Positions 27,115 through 49,958 of a stretch of DNA of 64,000 nt are shown piece after piece (position 1 is the first letter of the stretch; each line of letters opens with the position of its first letter). Both the position numbers and the translations under genes were made by a program. This DNA is from Salinibacterium sp. ZJ70 (GTDB lineage Bacteria; Actinomycetota; Actinomycetes; Actinomycetales; Microbacteriaceae), in contig NZ_CP061770.1 in the NCBI RefSeq assembly GCF_011751865.2, positions 434,001-498,000 of the forward strand, written 5' to 3'. The notes beneath the pieces are model-generated. The model was not told where the DNA came from and made no database searches. It worked only from the letters and a program-made list of their open reading frames with translations.

Positions 27115-27146
27115 GGCGACGCTGGCGCGGCAGTGCGCCAGCGATC

Positions 27147-27181: not shown

Positions 27182-27241
27182 CGTCGGGCGGCGGGGCGCG
27201 TTGACGTGAGGGCTGAGCGCGGCTTTACTGATCACGTCCTA

Positions 27242-27255
27242 AACAAGCGCTTGGT
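27242..27255. promoter_or_regulatory. KstR2-type operator (perfect)
   Basis: AACAAGCGCTTGGT matches the KstR2 consensus AnCAAGnnCTTGnT at all ten fixed positions. It lies 15 bp upstream of the ATG of the EthD-like gene. Confidence 0.8.
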
Positions 27256-27270
27256 TACTTGAGGAGCTCC

Positions 27271-28044
27271 ATGTTCGCCGACCTCGCCTTCTTCTCGTTC
27301 ATCGCGTTGACCGACCCCACCGCCCACCGCGCGTACAACGAGTGGCACCAGCTCGACCACCTCCCCGAGAACCTCGCGCTGCCCGGCGTCGCCCACGGCC
27401 AACGCTGGGCTCGTCGTGGCGAGTGCGGCCAGGCCGGTCGCACATCCCCCGAATTCGCGGGCGTCGACTACGCCGCGATGTATTGGTTCCGCTCGCCGCT
27501 CGAGGAGTCGCTGCGTGAGTGGGACCGGCTCGGCGAAGCGTCGTTCCAGTGGGGCCGCGGCCCGATCTTCCCGGGGGTCGCCCGCCCCTTCCTCGGCTTC
27601 TTCCGCCCCGTCGCCGGCATCGCCGCCGGGCGCATCGGCGTGAGCAGCGAGGTGCTGCCTTTCCGACCCAACCGCGGCGTCCACCTCACCATGTCGCGCT
27701 ACCGCGACCACCACGGGCTCGCGACTCACGAGCGCTACCGTTGGGAGAACTCCGAGCTGCTGCCCGCGCTCACCGGGCTTCCGGGCGTCGCCGGGGCGTG
27801 GACGTTCTCGTTCAGCCACGCTCAGCGTCACTCTTCGCTGTCGTTCGGAAACGACCAGTCACCCGAGCCTGGCAGCCTCCGGGTGCGCCTGGTCTACCTC
27901 GATGGCGACCCGATCGAGACCTCCGTCGCCATCGCACACACCACCGCCGAGGTCGACCGTTCGGCGACGGCCCTCGCCCGCGACGCCGAAGAGGTGCTGT
28001 TCTCGTCGCCGCTGTCGACGATCATCCCCTGGCAGGACTGGTAG
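27271..28044 (+). CDS. EthD-like (dimeric alpha-beta barrel) protein of unknown function
   Basis: ATG 27271 is preceded by GAGGAG at the right distance. The 257-residue product has no signal or membrane segment. It shows the phrase RAYNEWHQLDHLPENLALPG, which resembles the histidine-containing active-site strand of EthD/dimeric alpha-beta barrel enzymes. A second related half may follow around residues 125-165 (HLTMSRYRDHHGLATHERYR). A perfect KstR2 operator directly upstream makes it part of the steroid regulon, but no canonical step is assigned. It overlaps the convergent MFS gene by 23 bp. Confidence 0.7.
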   Translation: MFADLAFFSFIALTDPTAHRAYNEWHQLDHLPENLALPGVAHGQRWARRGECGQAGRTSPEFAGVDYAAMYWFRSPLEESLREWDRLGEASFQWGRGPIFPGVARPFLGFFRPVAGIAAGRIGVSSEVLPFRPNRGVHLTMSRYRDHHGLATHERYRWENSELLPALTGLPGVAGAWTFSFSHAQRHSSLSFGNDQSPEPGSLRVRLVYLDGDPIETSVAIAHTTAEVDRSATALARDAEEVLFSSPLSTIIPWQDW

Positions 28045-29419
28045 GCCGCACCTTCGGCAGCGCCACGGCGATCGCCGCTGCGAGGGCGGCGGCGATGCCC
28101 ACGGTGATGAACCCCACATCCAATCCCTCCGAGGTGAGGTACTCAGCGTTCCCGTGCCAGGGGTAGGCCGTCATCAGCAGTGCGAAGGCCGAGCTTGTCA
28201 TCGCGGCGGAGAGCGACCGGATCAGCCCGTTCACCCCGGACGCCGCAGCCGCCTCGTGCGCCGGAACCGAGTCGAGGATGAGGGTCGGTGTCGCAGCGAA
28301 GGCGAACGCCGTGCCCACTCCCACGAGGAAGGTGCACAGCACGATCGATCCGACGCTCGGCTCGGTCCAGAGTCGGATCCAGAACCCCGCGGACATGATG
28401 GCCGCGCCGAGCGCGAGCGGAATCCGACCCCCGTAGCGGCCGAGTGCCTTGCCCACGACGGGGGACAGCACGACGAGCATGAACGCCGACGGCATGAGCA
28501 GAAGACCCGCCTGGGTCGCCTCGAGCCCGAGCCCGGATCCGGTGCTCTCGGGCGCGCGTGCCTGATTGAGGGTGAGGAAATGGTTGGCGAACATCCCCAC
28601 CGAGGCGAAAAACGCGGCGATGTTGGTCTGCATCACACCGCGCCGCATGCTCGTGCGCAGGTTGACGACGGGGTCCGGGGTGCGCAGCTGGTGCGGGATC
28701 CAGATGGCGAAGGCGAGCACGGCGATGCTCGCGAACAGGAGCGTGGGTGTGCTGGCCCAGCCCCACTCGAGCCCCTTCGAGACGACGAGCAGAAACGCAG
28801 CGAGGCAGACAGCGAGGATGCTCGCGCCGACGAGGTCGAAGCGCCCGCCGCTGCGGATGCGCGACGGCGTGACGAAGAGCGGCACGAGGATCAGGAAGAC
28901 AGCCCCCAGGATCGCAGAGAACCAGAAGATGGCGGGGATTCCGCCGGCCTCGAGCAGGATGCCGGCGAGCGGCAGGCCGATCGTCGATCCGATTCCGATC
29001 GTCGCGCTCATGGCGGCGATCGCGCTCGAGGAGCGCTCGCGGCTGAGCTGTTCGCGCATGATGCTGATGCCGATCGGCACGAGAGATGTGGCGAAGCCCT
29101 GGCAGGCGCGCCCGATCATGACGGTCGTGTAAGTCATCCCGATGGCGGCCAGCATCGAGCCGAGGGTGAGGATCGCGAGGCAGGCGATGAAGATGCGGCG
29201 CCTGCCGTACATGTCGGCCATACGTGCCACGATGGGGGTGCCGATGGTGCCGGCGAGCATGCTGATCGTGACCACCCAAGCCGCGTCCGTCGCGCTGACG
29301 TCGAGCGCGGAGGGGATCTCTGGTAGCGCCGGGACGGTGAGCGTGAACTGGAACGATGTCAGCATCCCCGCCCCGGCGAGGGTCGCGATGCTGAGCAGTT
29401 CACGGTGACGGGACGTCAT
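28022..29419 (-). CDS. MFS transporter, DHA2-like
   Basis: The 465-residue protein has about 14 hydrophobic segments and the MFS signature loop ARMADMYGRRRIF after helix 2, plus a motif-C-like helix GIGSTIGLPLAG, typical of drug:H+ antiporters of the DHA2 group. It is the third gene of a minus-strand unit (flavin oxidoreductase, thioesterase, transporter) headed by a KstR2-type site. Export of a toxic intermediate or steroid uptake are both possible. ATGA overlap with the thioesterase gene. Confidence 0.85.
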   Translation of the reverse strand: MTSRHRELLSIATLAGAGMLTSFQFTLTVPALPEIPSALDVSATDAAWVVTISMLAGTIGTPIVARMADMYGRRRIFIACLAILTLGSMLAAIGMTYTTVMIGRACQGFATSLVPIGISIMREQLSRERSSSAIAAMSATIGIGSTIGLPLAGILLEAGGIPAIFWFSAILGAVFLILVPLFVTPSRIRSGGRFDLVGASILAVCLAAFLLVVSKGLEWGWASTPTLLFASIAVLAFAIWIPHQLRTPDPVVNLRTSMRRGVMQTNIAAFFASVGMFANHFLTLNQARAPESTGSGLGLEATQAGLLLMPSAFMLVVLSPVVGKALGRYGGRIPLALGAAIMSAGFWIRLWTEPSVGSIVLCTFLVGVGTAFAFAATPTLILDSVPAHEAAAASGVNGLIRSLSAAMTSSAFALLMTAYPWHGNAEYLTSEGLDVGFITVGIAAALAAAIAVALPKVRPTSPARG

Positions 29420-29874
29420 GCCTGCCAGGTCTCAAGGCGCGCGCGCATATCGTCGGGGATCGGCACGGTGGTCTGCGCGGGGGAGACGGTCACGATCGTG
29501 TTGGCGGCTCGTGCAACGCGCACCCCGTCGGAGACGCGGGTCATCTCGAACTCGAACCGCACGGAGGAGGTGCCGACCCTGCCGAGGCGCATGTCCACCC
29601 GGATCTCGTCGAAGAGCGCGGCGGCGGCGAGGTACTCGCATTCGGTGGCGCGCGACACGAACCACCACCCGCGCTCATTCTTGAGTCGGTCGGCGTGGAT
29701 TCCCTGCAGGTAAAGGAACTCCGTCTGCACATACTCCATCTGGGGGAACCAGGCGCCGTAGTAGAGGATGCCCGCGGGGTCGGTGTCGGCGTAGCTGAGG
29801 CGGACGGTGCGGCTGTGGAGCGCGCGCGATGTCCCGGAGTTTCCGTCGGGGTTCCGGGGTCCGGTGGCGCTCAC
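29416..29874 (-). CDS. acyl-CoA thioesterase, 4HBT hot-dog family
   Basis: I place the start at GTG 29874, which overlaps the stop of the oxidoreductase gene (GTGA), giving 152 residues. The 4HBT catalytic phrase YADTDPAGILYYGAWF is present with its Asp. The rest is a single hot-dog fold. Such enzymes hydrolyse acyl-CoA esters; in this setting it may free CoA from a dead-end steroid intermediate (inference). ATGA overlap with the MFS gene shows it is part of the same transcript. Confidence 0.85.
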   Translation of the reverse strand: MSATGPRNPDGNSGTSRALHSRTVRLSYADTDPAGILYYGAWFPQMEYVQTEFLYLQGIHADRLKNERGWWFVSRATECEYLAAAALFDEIRVDMRLGRVGTSSVRFEFEMTRVSDGVRVARAANTIVTVSPAQTTVPIPDDMRARLETWQA

Positions 29875-30746
29875 GCGAGGAGCTCGGCGAGCGCGTGGAG
29901 CTGCTCGAGGTAATGGCTCGCGCTCGTCGCGTCGATGGTGACGTTGGCGTCGGTGGCTCCTGCGGTGCGCATGCTGCGGAGCTCGGCGAGTGCTGCCTCG
30001 GGCGCGGCGATGGGGTCGAGTCGCGGGGTGCCGAGCACGACGCGGAAGTCGGCGGGAGGCTGGGCGCGCTCGAGCATCTGCTGCACCGTGTCGTGGGGGA
30101 GCGAGAAGGGCACCCATCCGTCGCCACGGCGGACCGCGCGGCGGAGTGAGATCCCGGTGCGGCCACCGAGGATGAGGTCGACGTGGCGCCGCGGGGAGCT
30201 GGGGGTCACGTCGACGGAGTCGAACGCGTAGTACGGACCGTTGTGGTGCGGTCTGGGGGTGCCCCAGGCGGCGCGGAGGGCGTCGATGGCGTCGTCGGCG
30301 CGGGCGCCGCGGTCTTCGAAGGGCGCGTCGAGGAGGGCGAACTCTGCTTCGAGGCTGCCCACCCCGAGGCCGAGCGTGACGCGGCCGCCGCTCAGGAGGT
30401 CGAGGGTGCCGTAGCTCTTCGCGATCTGGAGCGGGTGGTGGTAGCCGAGCACGAGCACGGTGGTGAACAGGGTGATGCGTTCGGTGCGCGCGGCGAGGTA
30501 GGCGAGGGTCGCGAGTGGATCCCAGTATGTGCCGCCGCGTTCGTCGGCGATCTGCGTGGGCACGGCGGTGTGCTCGGCGCAGGTCAGGTGGGAGTACCCG
30601 AGGCGGTCGGCGGTCTCGGCGATGAGGGCCAGCTCGACGGCCCCGGCGCGAGTCTCCCAGCCGGCCGCGGGGGGCGGGTAGGTAGTCACAACGGGGGTGT
30701 TGAGGCCGATCCGCGCCGGGATGTCAGTGCGTGGCGTGCGCTCCAT
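29871..30746 (-). CDS. luciferase-like flavin-dependent oxidoreductase
   Basis: ATG 30746 (MERTPRTD) gives 291 residues; it lies just downstream of the KstR2-like site, whereas an upstream ATG at 30806 would place the operator inside the gene. The LLM fold is visible as RIGLNTPVV, LGYSHLTCAEHTAVP, ITLFTTVLVLGYHHPLQIAK and the flavin loop GRVTLGLGVGS. It uses F420H2 or FMN. Substrate is unknown; the operon context (thioesterase, MFS, divergent SDR-thiolase) suggests a steroid-CoA or ketone intermediate. Confidence 0.85.
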   Translation of the reverse strand: MERTPRTDIPARIGLNTPVVTTYPPPAAGWETRAGAVELALIAETADRLGYSHLTCAEHTAVPTQIADERGGTYWDPLATLAYLAARTERITLFTTVLVLGYHHPLQIAKSYGTLDLLSGGRVTLGLGVGSLEAEFALLDAPFEDRGARADDAIDALRAAWGTPRPHHNGPYYAFDSVDVTPSSPRRHVDLILGGRTGISLRRAVRRGDGWVPFSLPHDTVQQMLERAQPPADFRVVLGTPRLDPIAAPEAALAELRSMRTAGATDANVTIDATSASHYLEQLHALAELLA

Positions 30747-30754
30747 ATCGCCAA

Positions 30755-30768
30755 ACCTAGCATTTGGT
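30755..30768. promoter_or_regulatory. KstR2-type operator (8/10)
   Basis: ACCTAGCATTTGGT keeps 8 of the 10 fixed bases of AnCAAGnnCTTGnT; the two changes are symmetrical. It lies between the divergent flavin-oxidoreductase and SDR-thiolase units and can serve both. Confidence 0.6.
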
Positions 30769-30809
30769 TGGTAGTCTGGCGCCGCTCGTGCACAAGGGAA
30801 AGGCACCGT

Positions 30810-31613
30810 ATGTCCATCGCGATCGACCTGAGCGGCTGGGTCGTCCTCATCACCGGCGGCGCGCGCGGCGTCGGCAGGGGCATCGCCTCCCGCTTCCGCG
30901 AAGCCGGGGCCTTCGTCGAGATATGCGGCCGCTCTGAATCCGCCGAGATCGCCCCCGTCGATGACCCCGGTATCACCTACAGCTCGCTCGACGTACGCGA
31001 CGCCGACGCCGTCGAAGGCTGGATAGCCGACGTGGTCGCCCGACGTGGCCGCATCGACGTCGTCGTCAACAACGCGGGGGGGTCGCCCTTCGGAGCCTTC
31101 GAAGAAGGCTCGGCGCGCTACATGCGCGCGCTCACCGACCTCAACTTCCTATCCGCGGCGTTCGTGGCGCGCGCCGCACATCCGCACCTTGCCGCCTCCC
31201 CTCAGGGGAGCGTGATCAACATCACGTCGATCAGTGCGCGGCGCCCGAGCCCCGGCACAGCTGTCTACGGCGCAGCGAAGGCCGCACTGGAGAGCCTCAC
31301 CGAGAGCCTCGCCGTCGAGTGGGCGCCGCGGGTGCGCGTCAACGCAGTCAGTTGCGGGCTCGTCGCCACGGAGGCAGCGGCGTCGCACTACGGCGATGCG
31401 GAGCAGTTCGCGAAGGTGGCTGCGACGATCCCGCGAGGTCAGCTCGCCGACCCGCTCGAGATCGGCTGGGCGTGCGTCATGCTCGCCGCCCCGCACTCCA
31501 GCCACATCACAGGCGCCGTCGTCGATGTCGACGGCGGCGGCGAGTGGCCCGCCTTCCTCAGTCACACGCCCCACGCAGGTTTCGTCACCCGTTCGCAAGG
31601 AGCAACATCATGA
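30810..31613 (+). CDS. SDR-family dehydrogenase
   Basis: The 267-residue SDR shows the TGGARGVGRG cofactor motif, NNAGG, and the YGAAK catalytic motif preceded by SISARRPSPGTAV with the catalytic Ser. It overlaps the thiolase gene in an ATGA junction, so the two should be consecutive enzymes: a 3-hydroxyacyl-CoA (or ring alcohol) dehydrogenase followed by thiolysis. Behind a KstR2-like operator. The exact steroid step is unknown; it is distinct from ipdF (43465). Confidence 0.85.
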   Translation: MSIAIDLSGWVVLITGGARGVGRGIASRFREAGAFVEICGRSESAEIAPVDDPGITYSSLDVRDADAVEGWIADVVARRGRIDVVVNNAGGSPFGAFEEGSARYMRALTDLNFLSAAFVARAAHPHLAASPQGSVINITSISARRPSPGTAVYGAAKAALESLTESLAVEWAPRVRVNAVSCGLVATEAAASHYGDAEQFAKVAATIPRGQLADPLEIGWACVMLAAPHSSHITGAVVDVDGGGEWPAFLSHTPHAGFVTRSQGATS

Positions 31614-32830
31614 CCGAAGCAGTCATCGTCCAGGCGGTGCGCTCGCCGATCGGGCGCGCCGGCAAGGGATCGCTGAAAGATGTGCGACCCGACGATCTGC
31701 TCGCGCAGATGATCGACGCCGCCCTCGCAAGCATCCCCGAACTCGACCCGGCGCAGATCGACGACCTCATGACGGGCTGTGCGCAACCCGCGGGGATCCA
31801 GGGGTACAACATCGCCCGGATCGCGGCGCTCCAGCTCGGGCTCGACAGCGTTCCGGGCACGACAGTGCACCGGTACTGCTCGTCGTCGCTGCAGACCACC
31901 CGGATGGCGTTCCATGCCATCAAGGCGGGGGAGGGTGACGTGTTCATCTCGGCGGGCGTCGAATCGGTCTCGCACTTCGGCGCCGGCAAGTCGGACGGCA
32001 TGCCCGACACCAAGCACCCCCGTTTCGCAGAGGCCATGGCGCGCACCGCGGCGAACGCGGCCGATCCCGACTTCGTGTGGTCGGATCCGCGCACCCGGGG
32101 CGAGCTGCCCGACATCTACATCCAGATGGGCGACACGGCCGAGAACGTCGCTCAGCTGAAGTCGGTGTCGCGCCGGGCGCAGGACGAGTGGGCCGTGCTG
32201 TCGCAGAACCGCGCGGAAGCAGCCGCGATGCGCGGATTCTGGGAGACCGACATCACCCCGGTACGGCTCGCGGATGGCTCGCTCGTGACGACGGATGATG
32301 GTCCGCGTCGCGGCGTGACGCTCGAAGCGGTCTCGGCGATGAACCCCGTGTTCCGCGAGCACGGCACTGTCACCGCGGCCAACTGCTGCCCGCTCAACGA
32401 CGGCGCAGCCGCTCTCGTCATCATGAGCGACGCGAAGGCTGCCGAGCTCGGTCTCACCCCGCTCGCGCGCATCGTGGCCACGGGTGTATCGGCGCTCAGT
32501 CCCGAGGTCATGGGTCTCGGGCCTGTCGACGCCGTGAGCCGCGCCCTCGCGAGCGCGCGCATGTCGATCGGCGACATGGACATCATGGAGCTCAACGAGG
32601 CGTTCGCCGCGCAGGTGCTGCCCGCGATCGACGAGATCGGCATCGACCCGGAGCGCGTCAACGTCAACGGCGGGGCGATCGCGCTCGGCCATCCGTTCGG
32701 TATGACGGGCGCGCGCCTGGCGACCACGGCGATCCACGCCCTCCAGGAGCGCGACGAGCAGTTCGCGATCGAGACGATGTGCGTGGCGGGCGGGCAGGGG
32801 ATGGCTCTCATCCTCGAGCGCCTCAGCTGA
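31610..32830 (+). CDS. thiolase (acetyl-CoA acyltransferase)
   Basis: The 406-residue thiolase has the acylation Cys at residue 90 in HRYCSSSLQ, the His of ALGHPFGMTG and the base Cys in METMCVAGGQGM-like ETMCVAGGQGM. A 20-residue insert (GAGKSDGMPDTKHPRF) follows the first domain. It is not the canonical FadA6, which lies at 44278, and I cannot match it to FadA5 with confidence. It probably removes acetyl-CoA or propionyl-CoA after the adjacent SDR step. Confidence 0.9.
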   Translation: MTEAVIVQAVRSPIGRAGKGSLKDVRPDDLLAQMIDAALASIPELDPAQIDDLMTGCAQPAGIQGYNIARIAALQLGLDSVPGTTVHRYCSSSLQTTRMAFHAIKAGEGDVFISAGVESVSHFGAGKSDGMPDTKHPRFAEAMARTAANAADPDFVWSDPRTRGELPDIYIQMGDTAENVAQLKSVSRRAQDEWAVLSQNRAEAAAMRGFWETDITPVRLADGSLVTTDDGPRRGVTLEAVSAMNPVFREHGTVTAANCCPLNDGAAALVIMSDAKAAELGLTPLARIVATGVSALSPEVMGLGPVDAVSRALASARMSIGDMDIMELNEAFAAQVLPAIDEIGIDPERVNVNGGAIALGHPFGMTGARLATTAIHALQERDEQFAIETMCVAGGQGMALILERLS

Positions 32831-32843
32831 GGCGCTGCGCACC

Positions 32844-32879
32844 AGAAGGGGCCGGGCCGTGGTGGGACCGACCCCTTCT
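32844..32879. terminator. bidirectional hairpin between thiolase and fadD3
   Basis: AGAAGGGG (32844-32851) pairs with CCCCTTCT (32872-32879), with further pairing inside the arms. It lies between convergent genes and can end both transcripts. Confidence 0.6.
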
Positions 32880-32885
32880 CGCGCA

Positions 32886-34517: not shown

Positions 34518-34596
34518 TGTCGTCCTTTCTGGAGGCGGTTCGCGGAGCGCTTGTGTCGATTGTGTGCTGAAGATGAGCCGGGATGCGGCAGACTTG

Positions 34597-34610
34597 AGCA
34601 AGTGCTTGAT
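34597..34610. promoter_or_regulatory. KstR2-type operator (perfect)
   Basis: AGCAAGTGCTTGAT matches AnCAAGnnCTTGnT at all fixed positions. It lies between the divergent fadD3 and kstR2 starts, where it can control both and autoregulate kstR2. Confidence 0.88.
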
Positions 34611-34636
34611 TGGTCACTGAGGTGAGGGAGACCCGA

Positions 34637-35242: not shown

Positions 35243-35245
35243 CGT

Positions 35246-36864: not shown

Positions 36865-36906
36865 CGGTGCTCCTCGGGTGTTGCTCATCGCGGATCGACC
36901 GCAAAA

Positions 36907-36920
36907 ACCTAGCGCTTGTT
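36907..36920. promoter_or_regulatory. KstR2-type operator (9/10)
   Basis: ACCTAGCGCTTGTT differs from AnCAAGnnCTTGnT at one fixed base. It lies upstream of ipdA and just after the stop of the VOC gene. Confidence 0.7.
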
Positions 36921-36925
36921 TGGTG

Positions 36926-37435: not shown

Positions 37436-37440
37436 GACCC

Positions 37441-37454
37441 ACCTAACGCTTGGT
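37441..37454. promoter_or_regulatory. KstR2-type operator (8/10)
   Basis: ACCTAACGCTTGGT keeps 8 of 10 fixed bases, with an intact CTTGnT half. It lies between the divergent VOC and hexapeptide-repeat genes, 5 bp before the VOC start codon. Confidence 0.55.
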
Positions 37455-37497
37455 TGTGACGCAGAGCCTACCCGCGCCGCAGGAGAGAGAGGGACCC

Positions 37498-39221: not shown

Positions 39222-39231
39222 TGTGCTGTCC

Positions 39232-42202: not shown

Positions 42203-42227
42203 CGCGCCCCACCTTTCGAATCGACCA

Positions 42228-42241
42228 ATCAAGTGCTTGGT
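42228..42241. promoter_or_regulatory. KstR2-type operator (perfect)
   Basis: ATCAAGTGCTTGGT matches AnCAAGnnCTTGnT at all fixed positions. It lies between the divergent hydratase-dehydrogenase operon and the fadE30-ipdF-fadA6 operon. Confidence 0.87.
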
Positions 42242-42298
42242 TGCTAGCATACGGGAAGTTGGGAAGCCGGTCTCGAAGAGATCCGAGTGGAGGTGAAC

Positions 42299-43468
42299 GT
42301 GGGAGCGAGCAGCGAATCGCCCGAAGATGCAGCGTTCCGTGCGGAGATCCGCACATGGCTGGATGAGAACCTCACCGGCGATTTCGCCGCGCTGAAAGGT
42401 CTCGGAGGCTCCGGCCGCGAGCACGAGGCCTTCGACGAGCGCCGCGCGTGGAACCAGCACATGGCCGCACATGGCTGGACGTGCGTCGGCTGGCCGAAGG
42501 AGCATGGCGGACGCGGTCTCAGCCTGCAGCAGCAGGTGATCTTCCACGAGGAGTACGCGCGCTCGGAAGCCCCCGCGCGCATCAACCATCTCGGAGAGGA
42601 GCTGCTCGGGCCGACCCTCATCGCGCACGGCACCCCCGAGCAGCAGGCGCGGTTCCTCCCCGGTATCCGCGACGTCACGGAGCTGTGGTGTCAGGGCTAT
42701 TCGGAGCCGGGCGCGGGAAGCGACCTCGCGAACGTCTCCACCCGGGCGCGGCTCGACGGCGATCGCTGGGTGATCAACGGCCAGAAGGTGTGGACCTCGC
42801 TCGCGACGCAGGCGATGTGGTGCTTCGTCGTCGCGCGCACTGGAGAAGGCACGCGGCGCCACGACGGGCTCTCCTACCTGCTCGTTCCCATGGACCAGCC
42901 CGGAGTCGAAGTGCGTCCGATCGTGCAGCTCACCGGCACGAGCGAGTTCAACGAGGTCTTCTTCACCGATGCTGTCACCGACGCATCCCTGGTGGTCGGC
43001 CCCGTCGGCGGAGGATGGCCCGTCGCGATGGCGACACTCGGCTTCGAGCGAGGCGTCTCGACCCTCGCGCAGCAGATCGCCTTCCGTCGCGAGCTCGACG
43101 CCATCATCGACACGGCTCGTGCGTACGGCCTGCTCGACGACGCCGTCATCGTCGACCGGATCGTGCGCGCCCAGATCGGACTCGACGTGATGCGCCACCA
43201 TGCGCTGCGCACGCTCGGCGGAGAGCAGGGCTACGGGGCCTCTGTGGCGAAACTGCTCTGGTCGGGATGGCATCGGGATCTCGGCGAGCTCGCGATGCTC
43301 GTTCGTGGACCGAGCGCCCTCACCGTCGAGGCGCCCTATGAGCTCGACGTCGATCAGTCCCTCTTCCTCTTCACGCGCGCGGATACCCTCTACGGAGGCT
43401 CCGATGAGGTGCAGCGCAACGTCATCGCCGAGCGCGTGCTCGGCCTACCTCGAGAGGCTCGCGCATGA
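42299..43468 (+). CDS. fadE30: acyl-CoA dehydrogenase FadE30
   Basis: GTG 42299 has GGAGG at good spacing; an upstream GTG at 42287 lacks one. The 389-residue product has FAALKGLGGSGREHEAFDER, GEELLGPTLIAHGTPEQQ and VTELWCQGYSEPGAGSDLA, almost the same as mycobacterial FadE30 as I remember it. FadE30 starts beta-oxidation of the propionyl side chain of (5-OH-)HIP-CoA. It leads an operon with ipdF (ATGA overlap) and fadA6. Confidence 0.92.
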   Translation: MGASSESPEDAAFRAEIRTWLDENLTGDFAALKGLGGSGREHEAFDERRAWNQHMAAHGWTCVGWPKEHGGRGLSLQQQVIFHEEYARSEAPARINHLGEELLGPTLIAHGTPEQQARFLPGIRDVTELWCQGYSEPGAGSDLANVSTRARLDGDRWVINGQKVWTSLATQAMWCFVVARTGEGTRRHDGLSYLLVPMDQPGVEVRPIVQLTGTSEFNEVFFTDAVTDASLVVGPVGGGWPVAMATLGFERGVSTLAQQIAFRRELDAIIDTARAYGLLDDAVIVDRIVRAQIGLDVMRHHALRTLGGEQGYGASVAKLLWSGWHRDLGELAMLVRGPSALTVEAPYELDVDQSLFLFTRADTLYGGSDEVQRNVIAERVLGLPREARA

Positions 43469-44256
43469 GACCCGCACGGACCCCGGACTACGTTCCCGCT
43501 CACGGTCTGCTCGCAGGACGCCGAGTCGTCGTCACGGCGGCCGCCGGTGCGGGCATCGGCTCCGCGGTTGCAACGCGCGTGCTCGAAGAGGGCGCCGCGC
43601 TCGTCGTGATCGGCGACACGCACGATGGCCGACTCGACGCGGCCCGCGCGGAGCTCGCGGAGCGCTTCGGCGACGACCGCGTGCGCGCCGCCGTGTGCGA
43701 CGTCACCGACGAGACTCAGGTGTCGGCGCTGTTCGAACTCGCCGACGACGCCGGAGGCTTCGACATCCTCATCAACAACGCCGGACTCGGCGGCGAGGTC
43801 TCGGTCCTCGACATGCAGGACGACCAGTGGGCGAAGGTCATCGACGTCACGCTCACCGGCACGTTCCGCTGCATCCGCGCCGCAGGCCGCCGCTGGGTCG
43901 CCTCCGGCACCCGGGGCGTGATCGTTAACAACGCCTCCGTCATCGGATGGCGCGCGCAGGAGGGGCAGGCGCACTATGCTGCGGCGAAGGCGGGCGTCAT
44001 GGCGCTCACCCGCTCGGCGGCGATGGACCTGGCCGAGCACGGCATTCGGGTCAACGCGGTGTCTCCGAGCCTCGCGATGCATCCGTTCCTCGCCAAGGTG
44101 ACCACGCCCGAGCGTCTTGAGGAGCTCACCTCGCGTGAGGCGTTCGGCCGCGCGGCCGAGCCGTGGGAAGTCGCCAATGTGATGGTCTTCCTCGCGAGCG
44201 ACTATTCGTCGTATATGACCGGCGAAGTGGTCTCGGTCAGCAGTCAGCACGCCTAA
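43465..44256 (+). CDS. ipdF: SDR dehydrogenase IpdF
   Basis: The 263-residue SDR shows VVVTAAAGAGIGSAVATRVL, INNAGLGGEVSVLDMQDDQW and HYAAAKAGVMALTRSAAMDL, then FLASDYSSYMTGEVVSVSSQH. All of these match mycobacterial IpdF closely (from memory). IpdF oxidises the 5-hydroxyl of the HIP-derived CoA ester during C/D-ring breakdown. The catalytic YxxxK is intact. It follows fadE30 by overlap and precedes fadA6 by 21 bp, the same neighbours as in Mycobacterium. Confidence 0.9.
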   Translation: MRPARTPDYVPAHGLLAGRRVVVTAAAGAGIGSAVATRVLEEGAALVVIGDTHDGRLDAARAELAERFGDDRVRAAVCDVTDETQVSALFELADDAGGFDILINNAGLGGEVSVLDMQDDQWAKVIDVTLTGTFRCIRAAGRRWVASGTRGVIVNNASVIGWRAQEGQAHYAAAKAGVMALTRSAAMDLAEHGIRVNAVSPSLAMHPFLAKVTTPERLEELTSREAFGRAAEPWEVANVMVFLASDYSSYMTGEVVSVSSQHA

Positions 44257-44277
44257 CCCCAGCCAGAGGAGTCAACG

Positions 44278-45429
44278 ATGACCATCGCATATCTCGTCGA
44301 CGCGGTTCGCAGCCCCGTCGGTAAGCGGGGCGGCAGCCTCGCCGGCATCCACTCTGCCGACCTCGCAGCACACGCCATCACCGCACTCGTCGAGCGCTCG
44401 GGTGTGGATCCGGGGCGGATCGATGATGTGATCCTCGGCTGCACCGACACGCTCGGCTCCCAAGCTGGCAACATCGCGCGCACCGCGTGGCTCGTCGCCG
44501 GCTATCCCGAGCATGTTCCGGGAGTCACGGTCGACCGCCAGTGCGGGTCGAGCCAGCAGGCGGTGCACTTCGCCGCGCAGGCCGTCATGAGCGGCACGCA
44601 GGATCTGGTGATCGCGGGCGGTGTGCAGAACATGTCGGCGATCCCCATCTCGTCCGCCATGATCGTCGGCCAGCAGTACGGCTTCAGCACCCCGTTCGCC
44701 GAGTCGGACGGCTGGCGTGCGCGCTTCGGCGACCAGGAGGTCTCGCAGTTCCGGGCGGCCCAGATGATCGCCGACCGCTGGAGTCTCACGCGCGAGCAGA
44801 TGGAGCAGTTCGCGTTCGAGAGCCACCAGCGAGCGATCGCCGCCGCCGACGAGGGGCGGTTCGCACGCGAGATCGCCCCGATCGCCGGGCTCGGTCACGA
44901 CGAGGGGCCTCGCCGTGACACGTCGCTCGAGCGCATGGCGGGGCTCGACCCGCTCGCGGAGGGCGGCAGCATCACCGCGGCTGTCGCCTCGCAGCTTTCC
45001 GACGCCTCGAGCGCCGTCCTGGTCGCATCCGAACGGGCCGTGCAGGAGCACTCGCTCACCCCGCGCGCGCGGATCCACCACCTGAGTGTGCGGGCCGCGG
45101 ATCCGGTGTGGATGCTGACGGCACCCATCCCGGCGACGCAGCACGCCCTCGAGCGCGCGGGGATGTCGGTCGACGACATCGACCTGTTCGAGGTGAACGA
45201 GGCATTCGCGTCGGTCGTGCTGGCGTGGCAGAAGGAGCTTGGAATCGAACGCGAGCGCGTCAACGTCAATGGCGGAGGCATTGCCCTCGGACACCCAATC
45301 GGAGCCACCGGCACCCGGCTGATGACCACCCTGCTGAACGAGCTCGAGCGCACCGGGGGGCGCTACGGCCTGCAGACGATGTGCGAGGGCGGCGGAGTCG
45401 CCAACGTCACCATCATCGAACGGCTCTGA
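44278..45429 (+). CDS. fadA6: thiolase FadA6
   Basis: The 383-residue thiolase has the acylation Cys89 in VDRQCGSSQQ, the His in ALGHPIGATG and the base Cys in LQTMCEGGGVANVTIIERL. The strings VGKRGGSLAGIHSADLA and GVQNMSAIPISSAMIVG match FadA6 of Mycobacterium (memory). FadA6 cleaves the beta-ketoacyl-CoA after IpdF and again after ring opening. It ends the fadE30-ipdF-fadA6 operon, facing ipdC. Confidence 0.92.
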   Translation: MTIAYLVDAVRSPVGKRGGSLAGIHSADLAAHAITALVERSGVDPGRIDDVILGCTDTLGSQAGNIARTAWLVAGYPEHVPGVTVDRQCGSSQQAVHFAAQAVMSGTQDLVIAGGVQNMSAIPISSAMIVGQQYGFSTPFAESDGWRARFGDQEVSQFRAAQMIADRWSLTREQMEQFAFESHQRAIAAADEGRFAREIAPIAGLGHDEGPRRDTSLERMAGLDPLAEGGSITAAVASQLSDASSAVLVASERAVQEHSLTPRARIHHLSVRAADPVWMLTAPIPATQHALERAGMSVDDIDLFEVNEAFASVVLAWQKELGIERERVNVNGGGIALGHPIGATGTRLMTTLLNELERTGGRYGLQTMCEGGGVANVTIIERL

Positions 45430-45451
45430 CCGTCACACGACGCACGGAGAG

Positions 45452-45478
45452 GCGGCGATGCGAGACCCGGATCGCCGC
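45452..45478. terminator. hairpin between convergent fadA6 and ipdC
   Basis: GCGGCGAT (45452-45459) pairs with ATCGCCGC (45471-45478) around an 11-nt loop. It lies in the 71-bp gap between convergent stops and may terminate both operons. No T run follows. Confidence 0.5.
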
Positions 45479-45500
45479 GCACCCTCACGTCGCGACCGCA

Positions 45501-46574
45501 TCAGCGCACGATCATCGCGGAGGCCGTCTCGAGCTGGCCGACAGCCTCGGCGATGATGCGGTCGACGAGCTGCTCGCACGTGGGGATGTCGTCGATCACG
45601 CCCACCACCTGTCCCGCCGCGAGCATCCCCGCGGTGAGGTCGCCCTCGACGAGCCCGGCGCGGAGCATCTCGGGGGTGTTGGCGGCGAGCATCATCTGCG
45701 ACCAGTTGCGCCCGGACGCCTTCTTCATCGCGACGGCGTCCCGTGCCAGCGCAGGCCAGCTGAGTCCGCTGCGGCGCTTGAAGTCGAACGAGCGACGCAC
45801 GGTCGGAAGAAGCTGGCCCATCCCGCTGCCGCGCGTGAGCTGCTCGATGAACGGGGTTCGGAGCAGTCGGTGCGGCATGCCGTCGGCCTTCGTAGTGACC
45901 ACGGTGCCGTCGAGGCCGTAGCCGAGATAGTGCCGCTTGACGGCGTCGGGCACGTCGCTGTCCTGCGTGAGCAGGAACCGCGTTCCCATGCCGATCCCAG
46001 CCGCACCCCAGGAGAGCGCGGCTGCGAGCCCGCGACCATCGGAGAAGCCTCCCGCGGCGATCACCGGAAGGTCGACGGCGGCGACCACCGACGGCACGAG
46101 AAGGGAGGTCGGGATCGCTCCGGTGTGCCCGCCGCCCTCGCCGCCCTGGACCATCACGGCGTCGGCTCCCCATGCGGCGACCTTCTCGGCGTGCCGCACG
46201 GCCCCCACTGACGGCATCACGACGATGCCCGCGTCCTTGAGCTGCTTGATGAGGTCTTCGCGCGGGGCGAGAGCGAATGAGGCGACGGCGACGTGCTCGC
46301 GGATCAGCAGCTCGACACGTTCGCGGGCGTCACCTGCATCCGAGCGGAGGTTGACGCCGAACGGCCGATCGGTGCCCTCCTTCACCGTGCGGATGGTCTG
46401 TTCGAGCTCGGCGTAGTTCATCGTCGCGGAGGCGATGATGCCGAGCGCTCCGGCGTTCGCGGAGCCGATCACGAGCGACGCGCCGGAGACCCAGCCCATG
46501 CCGGTCTGGACGATCGGATGATCCACTCCCGCGAGTTCGGTGAGCGGGGTTCGGAGTCGCTGAGGTGTGGTCAT
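45501..46574 (-). CDS. ipdC: IpdC, nitronate-monooxygenase-like flavoprotein
   Basis: The 357-residue product is a TIM-barrel flavoprotein with VDHPIVQTGMGWVSGASLVI, MVQGGEGGGHTGAI and the FMN phosphate loop PVIAAGGFSDGRG, GIGMGTRFLLTQDS. It resembles 2-nitropropane dioxygenases, but in steroid degraders this branch is IpdC, an oxidoreductase of the 5-OH-HIC-CoA step. The size fits. It overlaps ipdB (pair 2) in an ATGA junction; the order echA20-ipdA-ipdB-ipdC is that of Mycobacterium. Confidence 0.88.
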   Translation of the reverse strand: MTTPQRLRTPLTELAGVDHPIVQTGMGWVSGASLVIGSANAGALGIIASATMNYAELEQTIRTVKEGTDRPFGVNLRSDAGDARERVELLIREHVAVASFALAPREDLIKQLKDAGIVVMPSVGAVRHAEKVAAWGADAVMVQGGEGGGHTGAIPTSLLVPSVVAAVDLPVIAAGGFSDGRGLAAALSWGAAGIGMGTRFLLTQDSDVPDAVKRHYLGYGLDGTVVTTKADGMPHRLLRTPFIEQLTRGSGMGQLLPTVRRSFDFKRRSGLSWPALARDAVAMKKASGRNWSQMMLAANTPEMLRAGLVEGDLTAGMLAAGQVVGVIDDIPTCEQLVDRIIAEAVGQLETASAMIVR

Positions 46575-47329
46575 GGTTCGGGGATCTCGCGTTCTCGGTG
46601 GCGGTCGGGGTCGATCCGCTCTCGGATGAGTGTGAGTTCGTGGGCGTCGGGCGCGCGGGTTTCGGGCGTCACTGCAGGCACGTGGAGGGCGCATCCCGTC
46701 GCCTCGACGACGGCGGCGACCTCGACCCCGGGGTGCACGGTGCGCAGGGCGAGCGTGCCGCCCGGGCCGCTCAGGTCGAGCACAGCGAGGTCGGTGATGA
46801 TCGCGCGGATGTCGTGGAATCTCGCAGCGGGGCCGAGCGCGCGGGCGCGGTCGCTTCCGATTCCGGTGACGGTGTCGACGCGGTCCACGAACACGCGCGG
46901 CTGGTGGCGCGCGACGAAGTAGCTCGTGGGGTGGTTGATCGTGTTGGCGGCCGCGGCGCGGGCACCGAGAAGCTGGCGGGTGGGGCGATCGTGCGGGCCG
47001 ATGGCGGAGAGGTTCTGGTTGCCGTGGCGATCGAGCTGGGCTGCACCCATGATGACGTGGCGTCGCCCGCTCGCGATGAGCTCGAAGAGCGCGCGATAGG
47101 GGAGCGAGCCTTCGCGCACCTCGAAGGGGTGCCCGATGGGCGGGGTGTCGGCGTACAGGGTCGCCGCGCCGTCGCTCAGCAGCAGTGCGGGGTTGTGCGT
47201 CAATCGGGCGAGCCGTGCTCCGATGCTCGGGATGATGCCCGTGGGACTCGCGAGAATCGCCCCGGCTCCGAGGAAGAGGTCGCCGCAGGCGGTCGCGGCG
47301 ATCTCGGCGCGAGTGGCGGCGGCGCTCAT
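46571..47329 (-). CDS. ipdB2: IpdB-like beta subunit (pair 2)
   Basis: The 252-residue product has the same CoA-transferase beta fold as pair 1 (ATRAEIAATACGDLFLGAGA, GAAQLDRHGNQNLSAIG, YFVARHQPRVFVDRVDTVTG). It overlaps both neighbours by ATGA junctions. By position (between ipdA and ipdC, after echA20) it is the syntenic IpdB, although pair 1 looks closer to the mycobacterial sequence. The symbol with the suffix 2 is only a label. Confidence 0.82.
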   Translation of the reverse strand: MSAAATRAEIAATACGDLFLGAGAILASPTGIIPSIGARLARLTHNPALLLSDGAATLYADTPPIGHPFEVREGSLPYRALFELIASGRRHVIMGAAQLDRHGNQNLSAIGPHDRPTRQLLGARAAAANTINHPTSYFVARHQPRVFVDRVDTVTGIGSDRARALGPAARFHDIRAIITDLAVLDLSGPGGTLALRTVHPGVEVAAVVEATGCALHVPAVTPETRAPDAHELTLIRERIDPDRHREREIPEP

Positions 47330-48153
47330 CGCGGCTCCGCTCCGGCGGCACCCGCGACGAATCCGGCGAGGTAGGCGCGGCGGGTCTCGTCATGGTCCGC
47401 CGCCGCCGCATAGCTGCGCTGCGCGTTCTCGTCGCGCGAGCGCAGCGGCGGGTTGGCGGTGAAGCCGACAGAGTCCTCGACGACGACGACATGATCCACG
47501 ACGGTGCGGGGGATGTGCAGCGTCGAGGGGTGGGCTGCGCCGAGCTCTTCCGTCTCGACGAGGAGATCCGTCGAGACGATGGTGGTTGCGGCGGCGCCCG
47601 CGAACAGATCGTCGAGGTGCGGGTCCTCGCCGAGGCACTGCACGTTCCCGCGCCGGTCGGCGCGGTCGGCGTGGAGCAGCGCGAGATCGAGGGGGATCGC
47701 GGGCATGGCGACGAGCGTCTCGCCTGTGTAGGGGCAGGGAATGGTGCGGATGCCGGACCCTTCGCGCAGCGCGTCGCTTCCGAGGCCGGCGCGGGTGGCC
47801 TCGAACCCGAGGCGCCGCGAGGCGGCGCGCAGCCCTGCCCCGAGCATCGCTTCGTCGAGTTCGAGGGTCTCGACCTCGCCCGCCTGACGGGCCCGCGCGA
47901 AGTGCGGGTCGATGGGGATGCTGTCGAGGGTGACGAAGCCGTGGACAATGCGTCGCGCCTGTCCGCTGGCGCAGAGGAGGCCGACGTCCGGCCCGCCAAA
48001 GCTCACGATGGTGAGATTCTTCGCGCCGGACGAGATGACGGCGCGCACGAGCGCGAGGGGCTTGCGGCGCGAACCCCACCCTCCGATGCCGATGGTCATC
48101 CCGTCGCGGATGAGCGTCGGCACGTCGCGCTCGGCGAGCGTGATGTCGATCAC
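47326..48153 (-). CDS. ipdA2: IpdA-like alpha subunit (pair 2)
   Basis: GTG 48153 overlaps the echA20 stop (GTGA). The 275-residue product keeps GMTIGIGGWGSRRKPLALVR and FGGPDVGLLCASG. It also keeps the LDEAM version of the catalytic-Glu motif. Its C-terminus differs: where pair 1 has GAHFTTCAPDYERDE, this copy has SVGFTANPPLRSRDENAQRS. The sequence difference suggests a different ring substrate or a diverging copy. Confidence 0.82.
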   Translation of the reverse strand: MIDITLAERDVPTLIRDGMTIGIGGWGSRRKPLALVRAVISSGAKNLTIVSFGGPDVGLLCASGQARRIVHGFVTLDSIPIDPHFARARQAGEVETLELDEAMLGAGLRAASRRLGFEATRAGLGSDALREGSGIRTIPCPYTGETLVAMPAIPLDLALLHADRADRRGNVQCLGEDPHLDDLFAGAAATTIVSTDLLVETEELGAAHPSTLHIPRTVVDHVVVVEDSVGFTANPPLRSRDENAQRSYAAAADHDETRRAYLAGFVAGAAGAEPR

Positions 48154-48908
48154 GTACGGAGGTTTCGCCCGTCGGCGACGAAGGCATCGCGGTGCTCGTC
48201 GGCCACACCGGCGAGGTTGAGCTCGAAGGTGAAGCCCTGCTCGAACCGGTAGCTGCGGTTGACATCGATGGGGTCGATCCCGTTGAGCGCTTCCTTGGCA
48301 GCGCGGATGACTCGGGTGTCCTTCGCAGCGATCTCCGTGGCGAAGGCGAGTGCTGTGTCGTCGAGCTGGTCACGCGGGACGACGTTCTCGACGGTGCCCC
48401 AGTCTGCGAGCTGGCGGGCGGTGATGGTGCTGCTCGTGTAGTACATCGCGCGCAGCTTGTGGTGCGGCACGAGGCGCGAGAGGTGGGTGGCCGCGCCGAG
48501 CGCACCGCGGTCGACCTCGGGGACGCCGAAGTAGGCGTCGTCGGAGGCGATGATCACGTCGCTGTTGCCGGCGAGTCCGACGCCTCCGCCGAGGCAGAAC
48601 CCGTTGACGGCTGCGATGACGGGGATGGAGCACTCGTAGATGGCTTTGAAGGCAGCGTAGCAACCCCGGTTGGCGCCGAGGATGCCCGAGAAGTCGGCGA
48701 TGGCCTGCATCTCCTTGATGTCGACGCCCGCGTTGAAGCCGCGCCCTTCCGCGCGGAGCACGACGGCGCAGGTGTTCGCGTCGAGCGAGGCCTCGGCGAG
48801 GGCGTCCGCGACATCGAACCAGCCGGCGACGGGGAGTGCGTTGACCGGCGGGTAGTCCATGGTGATCACGCGCACGCCACGATGGTGCATCGTTGATGTG
48901 ACAGCCAT
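48150..48908 (-). CDS. echA20: ring D hydrolase EchA20
   Basis: The 252-residue crotonase shows VITMDYPPVNALPVAGWFDV, LRAEGRGFNAGVDIKEMQ, GGGVGLAGNSDVIIASDDAY, EVDRGALGAATHLSRLVPHH and the C-terminal TFELNLAGVADEHRDAFV, all very close to EchA20 of Mycobacterium (memory). EchA20 opens ring D of HIEC-CoA, giving the substrate of IpdAB. It is the first gene of the echA20-ipdA-ipdB-ipdC operon; GGAGGAA precedes the ATG. Confidence 0.92.
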   Translation of the reverse strand: MAVTSTMHHRGVRVITMDYPPVNALPVAGWFDVADALAEASLDANTCAVVLRAEGRGFNAGVDIKEMQAIADFSGILGANRGCYAAFKAIYECSIPVIAAVNGFCLGGGVGLAGNSDVIIASDDAYFGVPEVDRGALGAATHLSRLVPHHKLRAMYYTSSTITARQLADWGTVENVVPRDQLDDTALAFATEIAAKDTRVIRAAKEALNGIDPIDVNRSYRFEQGFTFELNLAGVADEHRDAFVADGRNLRT

Positions 48909-48943
48909 TTGGGTTCCTCCCCGTCGGTTGCTATGTTTACCCT

Positions 48944-48957
48944 AGCATTTGCTTGGT
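48944..48957. promoter_or_regulatory. KstR2-type operator (8/10)
   Basis: AGCATTTGCTTGGT keeps 8 of 10 fixed bases with an intact right half. It lies between echA20 and the divergent hydrolase gene. The surrounding CCTAGCATTTGCTTGGT recurs almost unchanged at 59030-59046. Confidence 0.55.
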
Positions 48958-49056
48958 CGCCTGCTGAGAAGGATCTCCATCCCGTTCAGTGAGACGCGAG
49001 GCGGCGCCCCGCCGCACCGCGCCGCAGACTCAGGCACCACGACGAGGAGGTCGACA

Positions 49057-49905: not shown

Positions 49906-49958
49906 CCCAGTCCCACCGCCGGATTGGCGCAGAGTCGCGCCAACGAGTAAGGAGAAAG

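What the first reader, a model, noticed from the sequence alone, without database searches (positions are those of the whole stretch)
27242..48957. KstR2-type regulon for steroid ring C/D breakdown in a Microbacteriaceae-like genome
KstR2, fadD3, fadE30, ipdF, fadA6, ipdC, ipdAB and echA20 are present with mycobacterial-like order inside operons, but the operons are rearranged and mixed with other genes. Three perfect AnCAAGnnCTTGnT palindromes sit at divergent promoters. This module is best known from Mycobacteriales; its presence in a genome with Microbacteriaceae style suggests a steroid-degrading lineage or transfer.
Basis: partly seen in the sequence, partly recalled or inferred. Interest (0 to 1): 0.72.

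Follow-up and report, generated by a model that had tools for sequence, protein, structure and literature searches.

The report
Stand-alone steroid ring C/D island
A soil-type actinobacterium carries, as one inserted block of genes, the pathway that finishes the breakdown of steroids, but three key enzymes needed to start that breakdown were not found in its genome, so it may live on half-digested steroids leaked by other bacteria.

Summary
A KstR2 orthologue and homologues of all 14 listed genes of the mycobacterial/rhodococcal KstR2 (HIP, ring C/D) regulon lie in the window, with seven KstR2-type operators. Three are perfect, the only perfect ones in the 2.84-Mb genome; two of these three are at divergent promoters.

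The interpretation changes. (1) The module (27115 to about 64640) is a ~37.5-kb insertion: congener G180 has the same flanks 17 bp apart. ipdC is in 1 of 9 genomes of the genus and 3 of 349 of the family, this genome counted. (2) Its kin are other Micrococcales, in a well-supported sub-lineage with a second, divergent ipdAB pair. (3) No recognisable KshA, HsaC or KstD was found in the complete genome. Of 45 ipdC-bearing genomes tested, all 10 Microbacteriaceae lack strong HsaC and KshA matches; all 3 Micrococcaceae have KshA and an HsaC relative (below the HsaC cut-off).

Best reading: a horizontally acquired lower-pathway island, probably used to finish late steroid intermediates (HIP) from outside. 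A published survey that required KshA and HsaC could not have listed such genomes. Substrate and uptake are inferred; a non-steroid hydrindane substrate or an unrecognised upper pathway is not excluded.

The parts
27115..63986 (.). Island inside the window; it continues to about 64640 (coaE-like gene 63987-64643, minus strand, crosses the window's right end)
   Evidence: Absent between orthologous flanks in congener G180; right end read from the window joined with L003
27242..27255 (+). Perfect KstR2 operator AACAAGCGCTTGGT, 15 bp upstream of the 257-aa gene
27271..28044 (+). 257-aa protein of no Pfam/NCBIfam family; homologues (56-59%) near the module in G275 and Glutamicibacter, with a 1-mismatch operator in G275
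28022..29419 (-). DHA2-type MFS transporter
   Evidence: best model below its cut-off
29416..29874 (-). 4HBT thioesterase
29871..30746 (-). Luciferase-like (F420 type, TIGR03619) oxidoreductase; homologues (55-60%) lie beside the Streptomyces HIP modules L040, L063, L064, L070
30755..30768 (+). KstR2-like operator (2 mismatches), divergent promoter
30810..31613 (+). SDR PRK07856 (Rv3549c position)
   Evidence: 310 bits vs cut-off 255; order in Nocardioides L025
31610..32830 (+). Thiolase PRK07851
   Evidence: 692 bits vs cut-off 580
32886..34517 (-). fadD3, HIP-CoA synthetase-like ligase
   Evidence: best model FadD3 family, 616 bits, below its cut-off of 657
34597..34610 (+). Perfect KstR2 operator AGCAAGTGCTTGAT, divergent fadD3/kstR2 promoter
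34637..35242 (+). kstR2, TetR repressor
   Evidence: 187 bits to Mtb KstR2 (4w97, 4w1u); 188 bits to 2ibd
35246..36001 (-). ipdB2, canonical-type IpdB
   Evidence: 259 bits to 6con_B
35998..36864 (-). ipdA2, canonical-type IpdA
   Evidence: 334 bits to 6con_A; groups with canonical IpdA in the tree
36907..36920 (-). KstR2-like operator (1 mismatch); its reverse complement AACAAGCGCTAGGT recurs upstream of ipdA2 in six of ten relatives scanned
36926..37402 (-). Glyoxalase-fold protein
37441..37454 (+). KstR2-like operator (2 mismatches), divergent promoter
37498..38130 (+). PaaY/gamma-carbonic-anhydrase-like protein
   Evidence: below cut-offs
38103..39221 (-). Acyl-CoA dehydrogenase, fadE33 position (IpdE2-like)
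   Evidence: IpdE2 model 255 bits, below its cut-off of 450; 139 bits to 6wy8
39232..40194 (-). Acyl-CoA dehydrogenase, fadE32 position
40194..41363 (-). Acyl-CoA dehydrogenase, fadE31 position
41360..42202 (-). Enoyl-CoA hydratase PRK08290
   Evidence: 444.5 bits vs cut-off 280
42228..42241 (+). Perfect KstR2 operator ATCAAGTGCTTGGT, divergent hydratase/fadE30 promoter; a perfect or 1-mismatch site lies there in the ten relatives scanned
42287..43468 (+). fadE30
43465..44256 (+). ipdF
   Evidence: PRK07831, 422 bits vs cut-off 336
44278..45429 (+). fadA6
   Evidence: PRK07801, 688 bits vs cut-off 591
45501..46574 (-). ipdC
   Evidence: FabK-like, below the FabK cut-off; 71-74% to Microbacterium homologues in syntenic loci
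46571..47329 (-). ipdB, partner of the divergent IpdA
   Evidence: 260 bits to 6co6_B
47326..48153 (-). ipdA, divergent Micrococcales copy, catalytic Glu kept
   Evidence: 231 bits to 6co6_A; separate clade; DE(A/G/S) motif
48150..48908 (-). echA20
   Evidence: PRK07938, 406 bits vs cut-off 260 (run from the GTG at 48875); ATG start at 48908
48944..48957 (+). KstR2-like operator (2 mismatches), divergent echA20/hsaD promoter
49057..49905 (+). HsaD-like meta-cleavage hydrolase
   Evidence: 321 bits vs HsaD cut-off 400; 222 bits to Mtb HsaD
49959..55448 (+). Opp/Dpp-type ABC importer (SBP_bac_5, two permeases, two ATPases)
55461..56234 (+). IclR-family regulator
56295..59033 (+). hsaE-hsaG-hsaF-like genes
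   Evidence: 72-74% (hsaG, hsaF) to genes beside the Streptomyces HIP modules L060, L067, L076, L083
59076..59981 (+). SDR PRK07791 (Rv3548c position)
   Evidence: 466 bits vs cut-off 373
59978..60763 (+). MaoC-type hydratase
60833..63976 (+). ETF beta, ETF alpha and cytochrome b561-like protein
   Evidence: same set beside the module in L016 and Glutamicibacter

Best explanation
The block is a horizontally acquired, self-contained lower steroid pathway. FadD3 turns HIP into HIP-CoA. HIP-CoA releases KstR2 from its operators, and acyl-CoA dehydrogenases, hydratases, IpdF, FadA6, IpdC, EchA20 and IpdAB shorten the side chain and open rings D and C to give central CoA-esters. Because no recognisable KstD, KshA or HsaC is encoded, the host is unlikely to run the standard 9,10-seco pathway on intact steroids. 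The most likely substrate is HIP, or a similar late intermediate, released by other degraders and taken up by the linked importer. HsaD-E-G-F may also let it enter one step earlier, at a meta-cleavage product. Shown: gene content, operator sequences, insertion, no match to the three upper-pathway families. Inferred: induction by HIP-CoA, substrate, uptake, cross-feeding.
For: All 14 genes of the regulon listed in PMC5380842 have a homologue here. Operators fit the published motif of PMC3068626. KstR2 keeps an R-x-x-x-W motif that I count to Mtb positions 162/166 and recall as effector-contact residues (the paper was not held). No KshA_C match, no HsaC match at E 0.001, no KstD among the six strong FAD_binding_2 proteins. 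The only LigB-type match is in a separate mhp-type cluster with its own hydrolase. Empty site in congener G180. Same separation in all 10 Microbacteriaceae of the 45 genomes tested, while the 3 Micrococcaceae with a module of the same sub-lineage have KshA (278-287 bits) and an HsaC relative (324-329 bits). ABC importers beside the modules: a Liv-type one in G275 by Pfam, similar layouts in three Microbacterium, Opp-type here.
Against: No substrate, growth or expression data. FadD3 is below its curated cut-off (616 vs 657), so HIP specificity is not assured. The HsaC relatives of the Micrococcaceae are also below the HsaC cut-off of 450, so the contrast with Microbacteriaceae is one of degree of match. 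A non-homologous upper pathway cannot be excluded; HsaA, HsaB and the estrogen enzymes AedA/AedB were not searched in the genome, and my P450 search used too strict a threshold to prove absence. Relatives G275 and G096 have other oxygenases beside the module (P450, Rieske, flavin monooxygenase), so some members may have a different upper pathway. Eight other Microbacteriaceae and one MAG show weak extradiol-type matches (34-51 bits). HsaD is a downstream enzyme without an evident upstream partner. Importer specificity is unknown.
Confidence: 0.6

Rival explanations
1. The organism degrades whole steroids (for example estrogens) through an upper pathway whose enzymes are too distant to be recognised, and the island is simply its C/D part.
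For: Estrogen-degrading Microbacterium strains are reported, and M. resistens MZT7 was annotated with fadD3 and kshB (passages). G096 has a KshA_C-type Rieske oxygenase (97.5-98.7 bits) 20 kb from ipdC, and G275 has a P450 and a flavin monooxygenase in its cluster.
Against: The complete genome has no KshA_C match, no HsaC-type extradiol dioxygenase at E 0.001 and no KstD among the strong candidates. No oxygenase other than the luciferase-like protein was recognised in the island.
Confidence: 0.2
2. The module serves a non-steroid bicyclic compound (a terpenoid or other hydrindane acid), with HIP enzymes recruited for it and KstR2 tuned to that CoA-ester.
For: A second, fast-evolving IpdAB pair is found in 14 Micrococcales loci. 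Relatives carry epoxide hydrolase, P450 and FMO-like genes in the cluster. FadD3 is below its cut-off.
Against: Canonical IpdAB, IpdC, IpdF, FadA6 and EchA20 are all conserved, and Micrococcaceae with KshA and an HsaC relative carry the same sub-lineage.
Confidence: 0.15
3. Vertical inheritance with massive loss: the module is ancestral to Microbacteriaceae and was deleted in nearly all lineages, upper pathway first.
For: The Microbacteriaceae modules apart from Salinibacterium form one clade, with one unclassified MAG. 16S does not reject a clade of this genus with G096, its neighbour in the tree (p-AU 0.11).
Against: Present in 3 of 349 family genomes and 1 of 9 of the genus, this genome counted; clean empty site; G275 and Microbacterium ASV81 are sisters in the module tree (100/99), which 16S rejects (p-AU 3e-42).
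Confidence: 0.05

Closest known systems
KstR2 regulon of Mycobacterium tuberculosis, M. smegmatis and Rhodococcus jostii RHA1 (Kendall 2010; Crowe 2017)
   Same: KstR2, 14-bp operator, homologues of the 14 listed genes, echA20-ipdA-ipdB-ipdC order
   Different: Split into rearranged operons with seven putative operators instead of three; extra hydratase, thiolase, PaaY-like, glyoxalase-like, thioesterase, MFS and 257-aa genes; two IpdAB pairs, the canonical one beside kstR2; no KshA, HsaC or KstD found in the genome
Second ipdAB copy of Rhodococcus equi (mentioned in Crowe 2017)
   Same: Two IpdAB pairs in one genome
   Different: Here the second pair is shared by 14 Micrococcales loci and forms its own clade; relation to the R. 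equi copy was not tested
Glutamicibacter/Arthrobacter HIP modules (L032, L024)
   Same: Same sub-lineage, same operon blocks, perfect operator between fadE30 and the hydratase
   Different: Those genomes also have KshA and an HsaC-like dioxygenase

Membership tests
KstR2 regulon (HIP catabolism) | KstR2 repressor | tested here: met
   187-188 bits to the solved Mtb and RHA1 proteins, best of 43 structures at E 1e-8
KstR2 regulon (HIP catabolism) | AnCAAGnnCTTGnT operators at regulon promoters | tested here: met
   3 perfect and 4 imperfect sites, all 8-99 bp upstream of starts; binding not tested
KstR2 regulon (HIP catabolism) | The 14 genes of Table 1 of PMC5380842 | tested here: met
   A homologue of each; several below the strict NCBIfam cut-offs (fadD3, IpdE2-type), SDRs and fadE31-33 assigned by position
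KstR2 regulon (HIP catabolism) | IpdA catalytic glutamate (Ala in 6coj) | tested here: met
   Kept in both copies
KstR2 regulon (HIP catabolism) | De-repression by HIP-CoA | not testable with these tools
   Needs protein and ligand
[quoted passage not shown]
   0 matches to KshA_C in the complete genome
[quoted passage not shown]
   0 matches at E 0.001; 5 and 4 candidates scored
[quoted passage not shown]
   Of 18 FAD_binding_2 matches, the six strong ones are SdhA- and NadB-like by inspection plus PRK12834, PRK07121 and two TcuA-like by model; KstD models score at most 157 against cut-offs near 790. The 12 weak matches (28.5 bits or less) were not looked at
[quoted passage not shown]
[quoted passage not shown]
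   HsaD-like 321 bits vs cut-off 400; hydratase below its cut-offs; HsaG- and HsaF-like above cut-off, but those models are general acetaldehyde dehydrogenase and aldolase models

The most novel reading that the evidence does not exclude
Microbacteriaceae (and some Streptomyces) contain a guild of 'finishers': bacteria that carry a mobile KstR2-controlled ring C/D island, with its own importer and a second Micrococcales-specific ring hydrolase, but no ring A/B pathway. They live on HIP-type intermediates excreted by other steroid degraders. Such bacteria are invisible to surveys that define steroid degraders by KshA and HsaC.
Probability: 0.45. Interest if true: 0.65.

Novelty: new variant of a known kind. 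Interest (0 to 1): 0.52.

Why it matters
HIP is where aerobic and anaerobic steroid pathways are said to converge. If a lineage keeps only the half after HIP, steroid breakdown in soil and water is shared between species, HIP is a public good, and surveys that require KshA and HsaC, such as Bergstrand 2016, undercount the bacteria involved. It also offers a likely non-pathogenic actinobacterial setting for ring C/D enzymes that in tuberculosis are virulence-linked, and poses a clear question: what the second IpdAB does.

Tried and rejected
Rejected as unlikely: a recent import of a mycobacterial regulon. IpdC is 64% to R. hoagii and to a Mycobacteriaceae MAG against 71-74% to Microbacterium, and KstR2 is 34-46% to plasmid-borne Rhodococcus and Nocardia copies against 56-71% to Microbacteriaceae. 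L041, labelled R. rhodnii, lies in a 12.4-Mb genome, so its label is doubtful. Rejected: IpdAB as ordinary CoA-transferases. Rejected: HsaD of the window as partner of the genome's only LigB match, since that cluster at 2.466-2.471 Mb has its own hydrolase and hydratase. Rejected: a missing gene between fadE31 and fadE30; my first gene caller overlooked the hydratase at 41360-42202. Led nowhere: direct or inverted repeats shared by the island ends (longest exact match 11 and 9 bases, as in shuffles; one search had looked only inside each end); tRNA at the ends (none); GC contrast (none); close plasmid kin (6 records, all under 60% identity); FadD3 against solved structures at E 1e-80 (0 matches, a strict limit); the motif in PMC7807495 (not printed there); the place of the window's module inside the Microbacteriaceae clade (unresolved); the P450 search, whose limit of 1e-20 missed a P450 that Pfam sees in G275, so it proves no absence.
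Full report
What was checked. Genes were called in the window by a codon-usage script and many of them identified with NCBIfam and Pfam. PRK-level NCBIfam models (general names such as SDR, thiolase, enoyl-CoA hydratase) are passed by ipdF, fadA6, echA20, the two SDRs and the PRK08290 hydratase; fadD3 (616 vs 657 bits) and the IpdE2-type dehydrogenase (255 vs 450) have the expected best model but fall below the curated cut-off. Against solved structures, the TetR protein at 34637 is closest to 2ibd and to KstR2 of M. tuberculosis (4w97, 4w1u) at 187-188 bits; the fourth-best structure has 88 bits. That 2ibd is the RHA1 KstR2 is recalled; the entry is titled 'possible transcriptional regulator'. 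Both CoA-transferase-like pairs are closest to the entries 6co6, 6co9, 6coj and 6con, which I recall as RHA1 and Mtb IpdAB, far ahead of acetate or glutaconate CoA-transferases.

Operators. Kendall et al. (PMC3068626, passages seen) give the motif AnCAAGnnCTTGnT and three sites per genome in M. tuberculosis, M. smegmatis and R. jostii, 22-82 bp from the regulated starts they list. The window's genome has exactly three perfect sites, all in the window. Allowing two mismatches, the island has 14 matches, of which 7 are non-coding although only 3.6% of the island is non-coding; these 7 lie 8-99 bp upstream of start codons. In relatives the perfect site ACCAAGCACTTGTT between fadE30 and the hydratase recurs in Glutamicibacter, Microbacterium ASV81, Salinibacterium, Amycolatopsis and Arthrobacter; the other five scanned (G275, G096, G351, G353, G355) have a one-mismatch site there. 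The variant AACAAGCGCTAGGT recurs upstream of ipdA2 in six of the ten. The site at 27242 serves one gene, a 257-aa protein of no known family; its homologue in G275 also has a one-mismatch site close to its start.

Completeness. Crowe et al. (PMC5380842, section 4 and passages seen) list 14 KstR2 regulon genes. Each has a homologue here. The two SDR genes (30810+, 59076+) and the three dehydrogenases were matched by their order in Nocardioides L025, which shows the mycobacterial order as far as its locus reaches; the mycobacterial order itself is taken from the table and my knowledge.

An inserted block. Both flanks are core-type genes. In congener G180 the order gpmA, DUF, small ORF, MarR, SDR is followed 17 bp later by a hydrolase and then phoU-senX3-regX3-carD (gene names by inspection). 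In the window's genome the same SDR ends at 27114 and the same hydrolase ends at 64640, with 37.5 kb between. Five congeners were read. G269, G127, G058 and G228 also lack the block between gpmA and the senX3/regX3/carD group, but none shows the exact site: G127, G058 and G228 lack the MarR-SDR pair too, G269 shows no hydrolase or phoU call, and G228 has two unrelated genes there. ipdC is in 1 of 9 genomes of the genus and 3 of 349 of the family (E at most 1e-60, at most five candidates scored per genome), this genome counted in both. The ends share no repeat beyond chance and carry no tRNA gene, so the mechanism of entry is unknown.

Who its kin are. A genome scan with IpdC kept the best 80 of 520 loci. 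A tree of six proteins used 48 of 83 sources (those with at least five of the six; the rest were dropped, and no Mycobacteriales row remained). It puts the window with Microbacterium, G096, G275 and one MAG (10 rows, SH-aLRT 100), then with Salinibacterium, Glutamicibacter and Arthrobacter (14 rows, 100), then with Amycolatopsis and three Nocardioides (18 rows, 98); Streptomyces and others lie outside. A second tree joins G275 to Microbacterium ASV81 (100/99), which 16S rejects (p-AU 3e-42), so the module has probably moved between genera. The window's own place there is unresolved; holding it with G275 alone, or with G275 and Salinibacterium, which 16S similarity suggests, is rejected (p-AU 0.003 and 3e-100). 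Against this, 16S does not reject joining its genus to G096 (p-AU 0.11), its neighbour. These groups were named after the trees were seen.

Two IpdAB pairs. The pair in the echA20-ipdC operon is the divergent one: in a tree of 41 IpdA rows from chosen loci, G275, G096 and the window, the Micrococcales operon copies form one clade (14 rows, SH-aLRT 100), while the pair beside kstR2 groups with canonical IpdA. The window's operon copy has a long branch (0.82). The glutamate that is alanine in 6coj is present in 13 of the 14 operon copies; the fourteenth (L019) could not be read there, perhaps a sequencing error. Crowe et al. call a second copy fairly unique to R. equi; here it is shared by a clade.

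No upper pathway found. The genome has no KshA_C match, no HsaC match at E 0.001 and, among 18 FAD_binding_2 matches of which the six strong ones were looked at, no KstD. I then tested 45 genomes with ipdC (the window's genome, G096, G275 and the genomes of 42 of the 80 loci; the other 38 loci, mostly Streptomyces and short contigs, were left out). HsaC passes its cut-off in 21 of 45, and 9 more have a 273-339-bit relative; KshA_C at 268 bits or more is in 28 of 45. Fifteen lack both: all 10 Microbacteriaceae (G000, G096, G275, six Microbacterium, Salinibacterium), one unclassified MAG whose module lies among Microbacterium, and four Streptomyces (one with a 167-bit HsaC relative). Weak HsaC-model matches (34-51 bits) occur in G096, the six Microbacterium, Salinibacterium and the MAG. 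G096 has a weaker KshA_C protein (98.7 bits, over the Pfam cut-off) 20 kb from ipdC. Two MAGs have HsaC or a relative without a strong KshA. All three Micrococcaceae (Arthrobacter, two Glutamicibacter) have KshA and an HsaC relative of 324-329 bits, below the cut-off of 450. Most of these are draft genomes whose completeness was not told; this one is complete.

The right half of the island. In most other Microbacteriaceae loci echA20 faces the SDR_3548-MaoC operon directly (G275 has one SDR between; Se63.02b is rearranged). In the window an HsaD-like hydrolase, an Opp-type importer, an IclR regulator and hsaE-G-F genes lie between. HsaD is closest to Mtb HsaD among structures (222 bits; BphD 196) but below the HsaD cut-off, and its homologues reach Agrobacterium. 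The hsaG and hsaF genes are 72-74% identical to genes beside four Streptomyces HIP modules, which hints at a steroid role. G275 has a Liv-type importer beside the module (solute-binding protein by Pfam), and three Microbacterium show a similar layout.

Literature. Bergstrand et al. (PMC4810484; abstract, passages and parts 1-2 of 7 of section 3 seen) named putative steroid degraders only if KshA and HsaC were among at least six of eight key enzymes, so genomes like this were excluded by design; 'Microbacteri' does not occur in the held text. The held text of Holert et al. (PMC5790920, passages) does not contain it either. A bile-acid review (PMC8399759, passages) discusses cross-feeding of intermediates and KstR2 relief by HIP-CoA esters. 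An estrogen review (PMC12507874, passages) and the MZT7 paper (PMC9518027, passages) report estradiol-degrading Microbacterium, MZT7 annotated with fadD3 and kshB. Ten searches listed no paper on a C/D-only Microbacteriaceae, in a library that lacks most subscription papers; supplements could not be read. Growth of a streptomycete on HIP (1977) is cited in PMC5380842; I saw the citation only.

Verdict. Real, more than chance, and ordinary in its enzymes. Unusual in being a free-standing, inserted lower pathway in a family where few genomes have it, without a recognisable upper pathway. Identity of the module: very likely. Use on externally supplied HIP: probable but unproven.

Noticed in passing
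window 9145-10401 and 10360-10435: A serine-recombinase gene (PF07508) ends at a tRNA-Lys(ttt) gene, in a stretch of lower GC (4-12 kb, 63-65% against 69%): probably a small separate integrated element.
   Followed up: partly
window 63987 to L003:643 (minus strand): A dephospho-CoA kinase (CoaE) gene is the last gene of the island; homologues (45-46%) lie beside the HIP modules of Microbacterium sufflavum and Se63.02b. Whether the genome has another coaE was not tested.
   Followed up: partly
Microbacterium sp. Se63.02b (L109, L019): A second cluster with ipdC-like (55%), ipdB-like (56%) and two more kstR2-like genes (51%, 60%) with a perfect operator lies upstream of its main HIP module.
   Followed up: no
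G275 (L100, L101) and G096 (L103, L104): P450 with reductase and epoxide hydrolase, flavin monooxygenase-like and old-yellow-enzyme genes (G275), and a KshA_C-type Rieske oxygenase with ligase and beta-oxidation-type genes (G096), are set into or beside the module: possible varied upper pathways.
   Followed up: partly
L060, L067, L076, L083 (Streptomyces): hsaE-hsaG-hsaF genes sit directly beside the HIP module; KshA and HsaC were not tested in these genomes.
   Followed up: no
G000:C1:2465789-2470701 (L153): An mhp-like cluster (hydroxylase, LigB dioxygenase, hydrolase, hydratase, aldolase-like) for phenylpropionates.
   Followed up: partly
L021, L107, L108 (Microbacterium sp. NIBRBAC000506063): Several module genes are split in two, probably sequencing errors or decay.
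   Followed up: no
L041 (labelled Rhodococcus rhodnii): Its genome is 12.4 Mb and its locus resembles that of Kibdelosporangium L039, so the species label looks doubtful.
   Followed up: no
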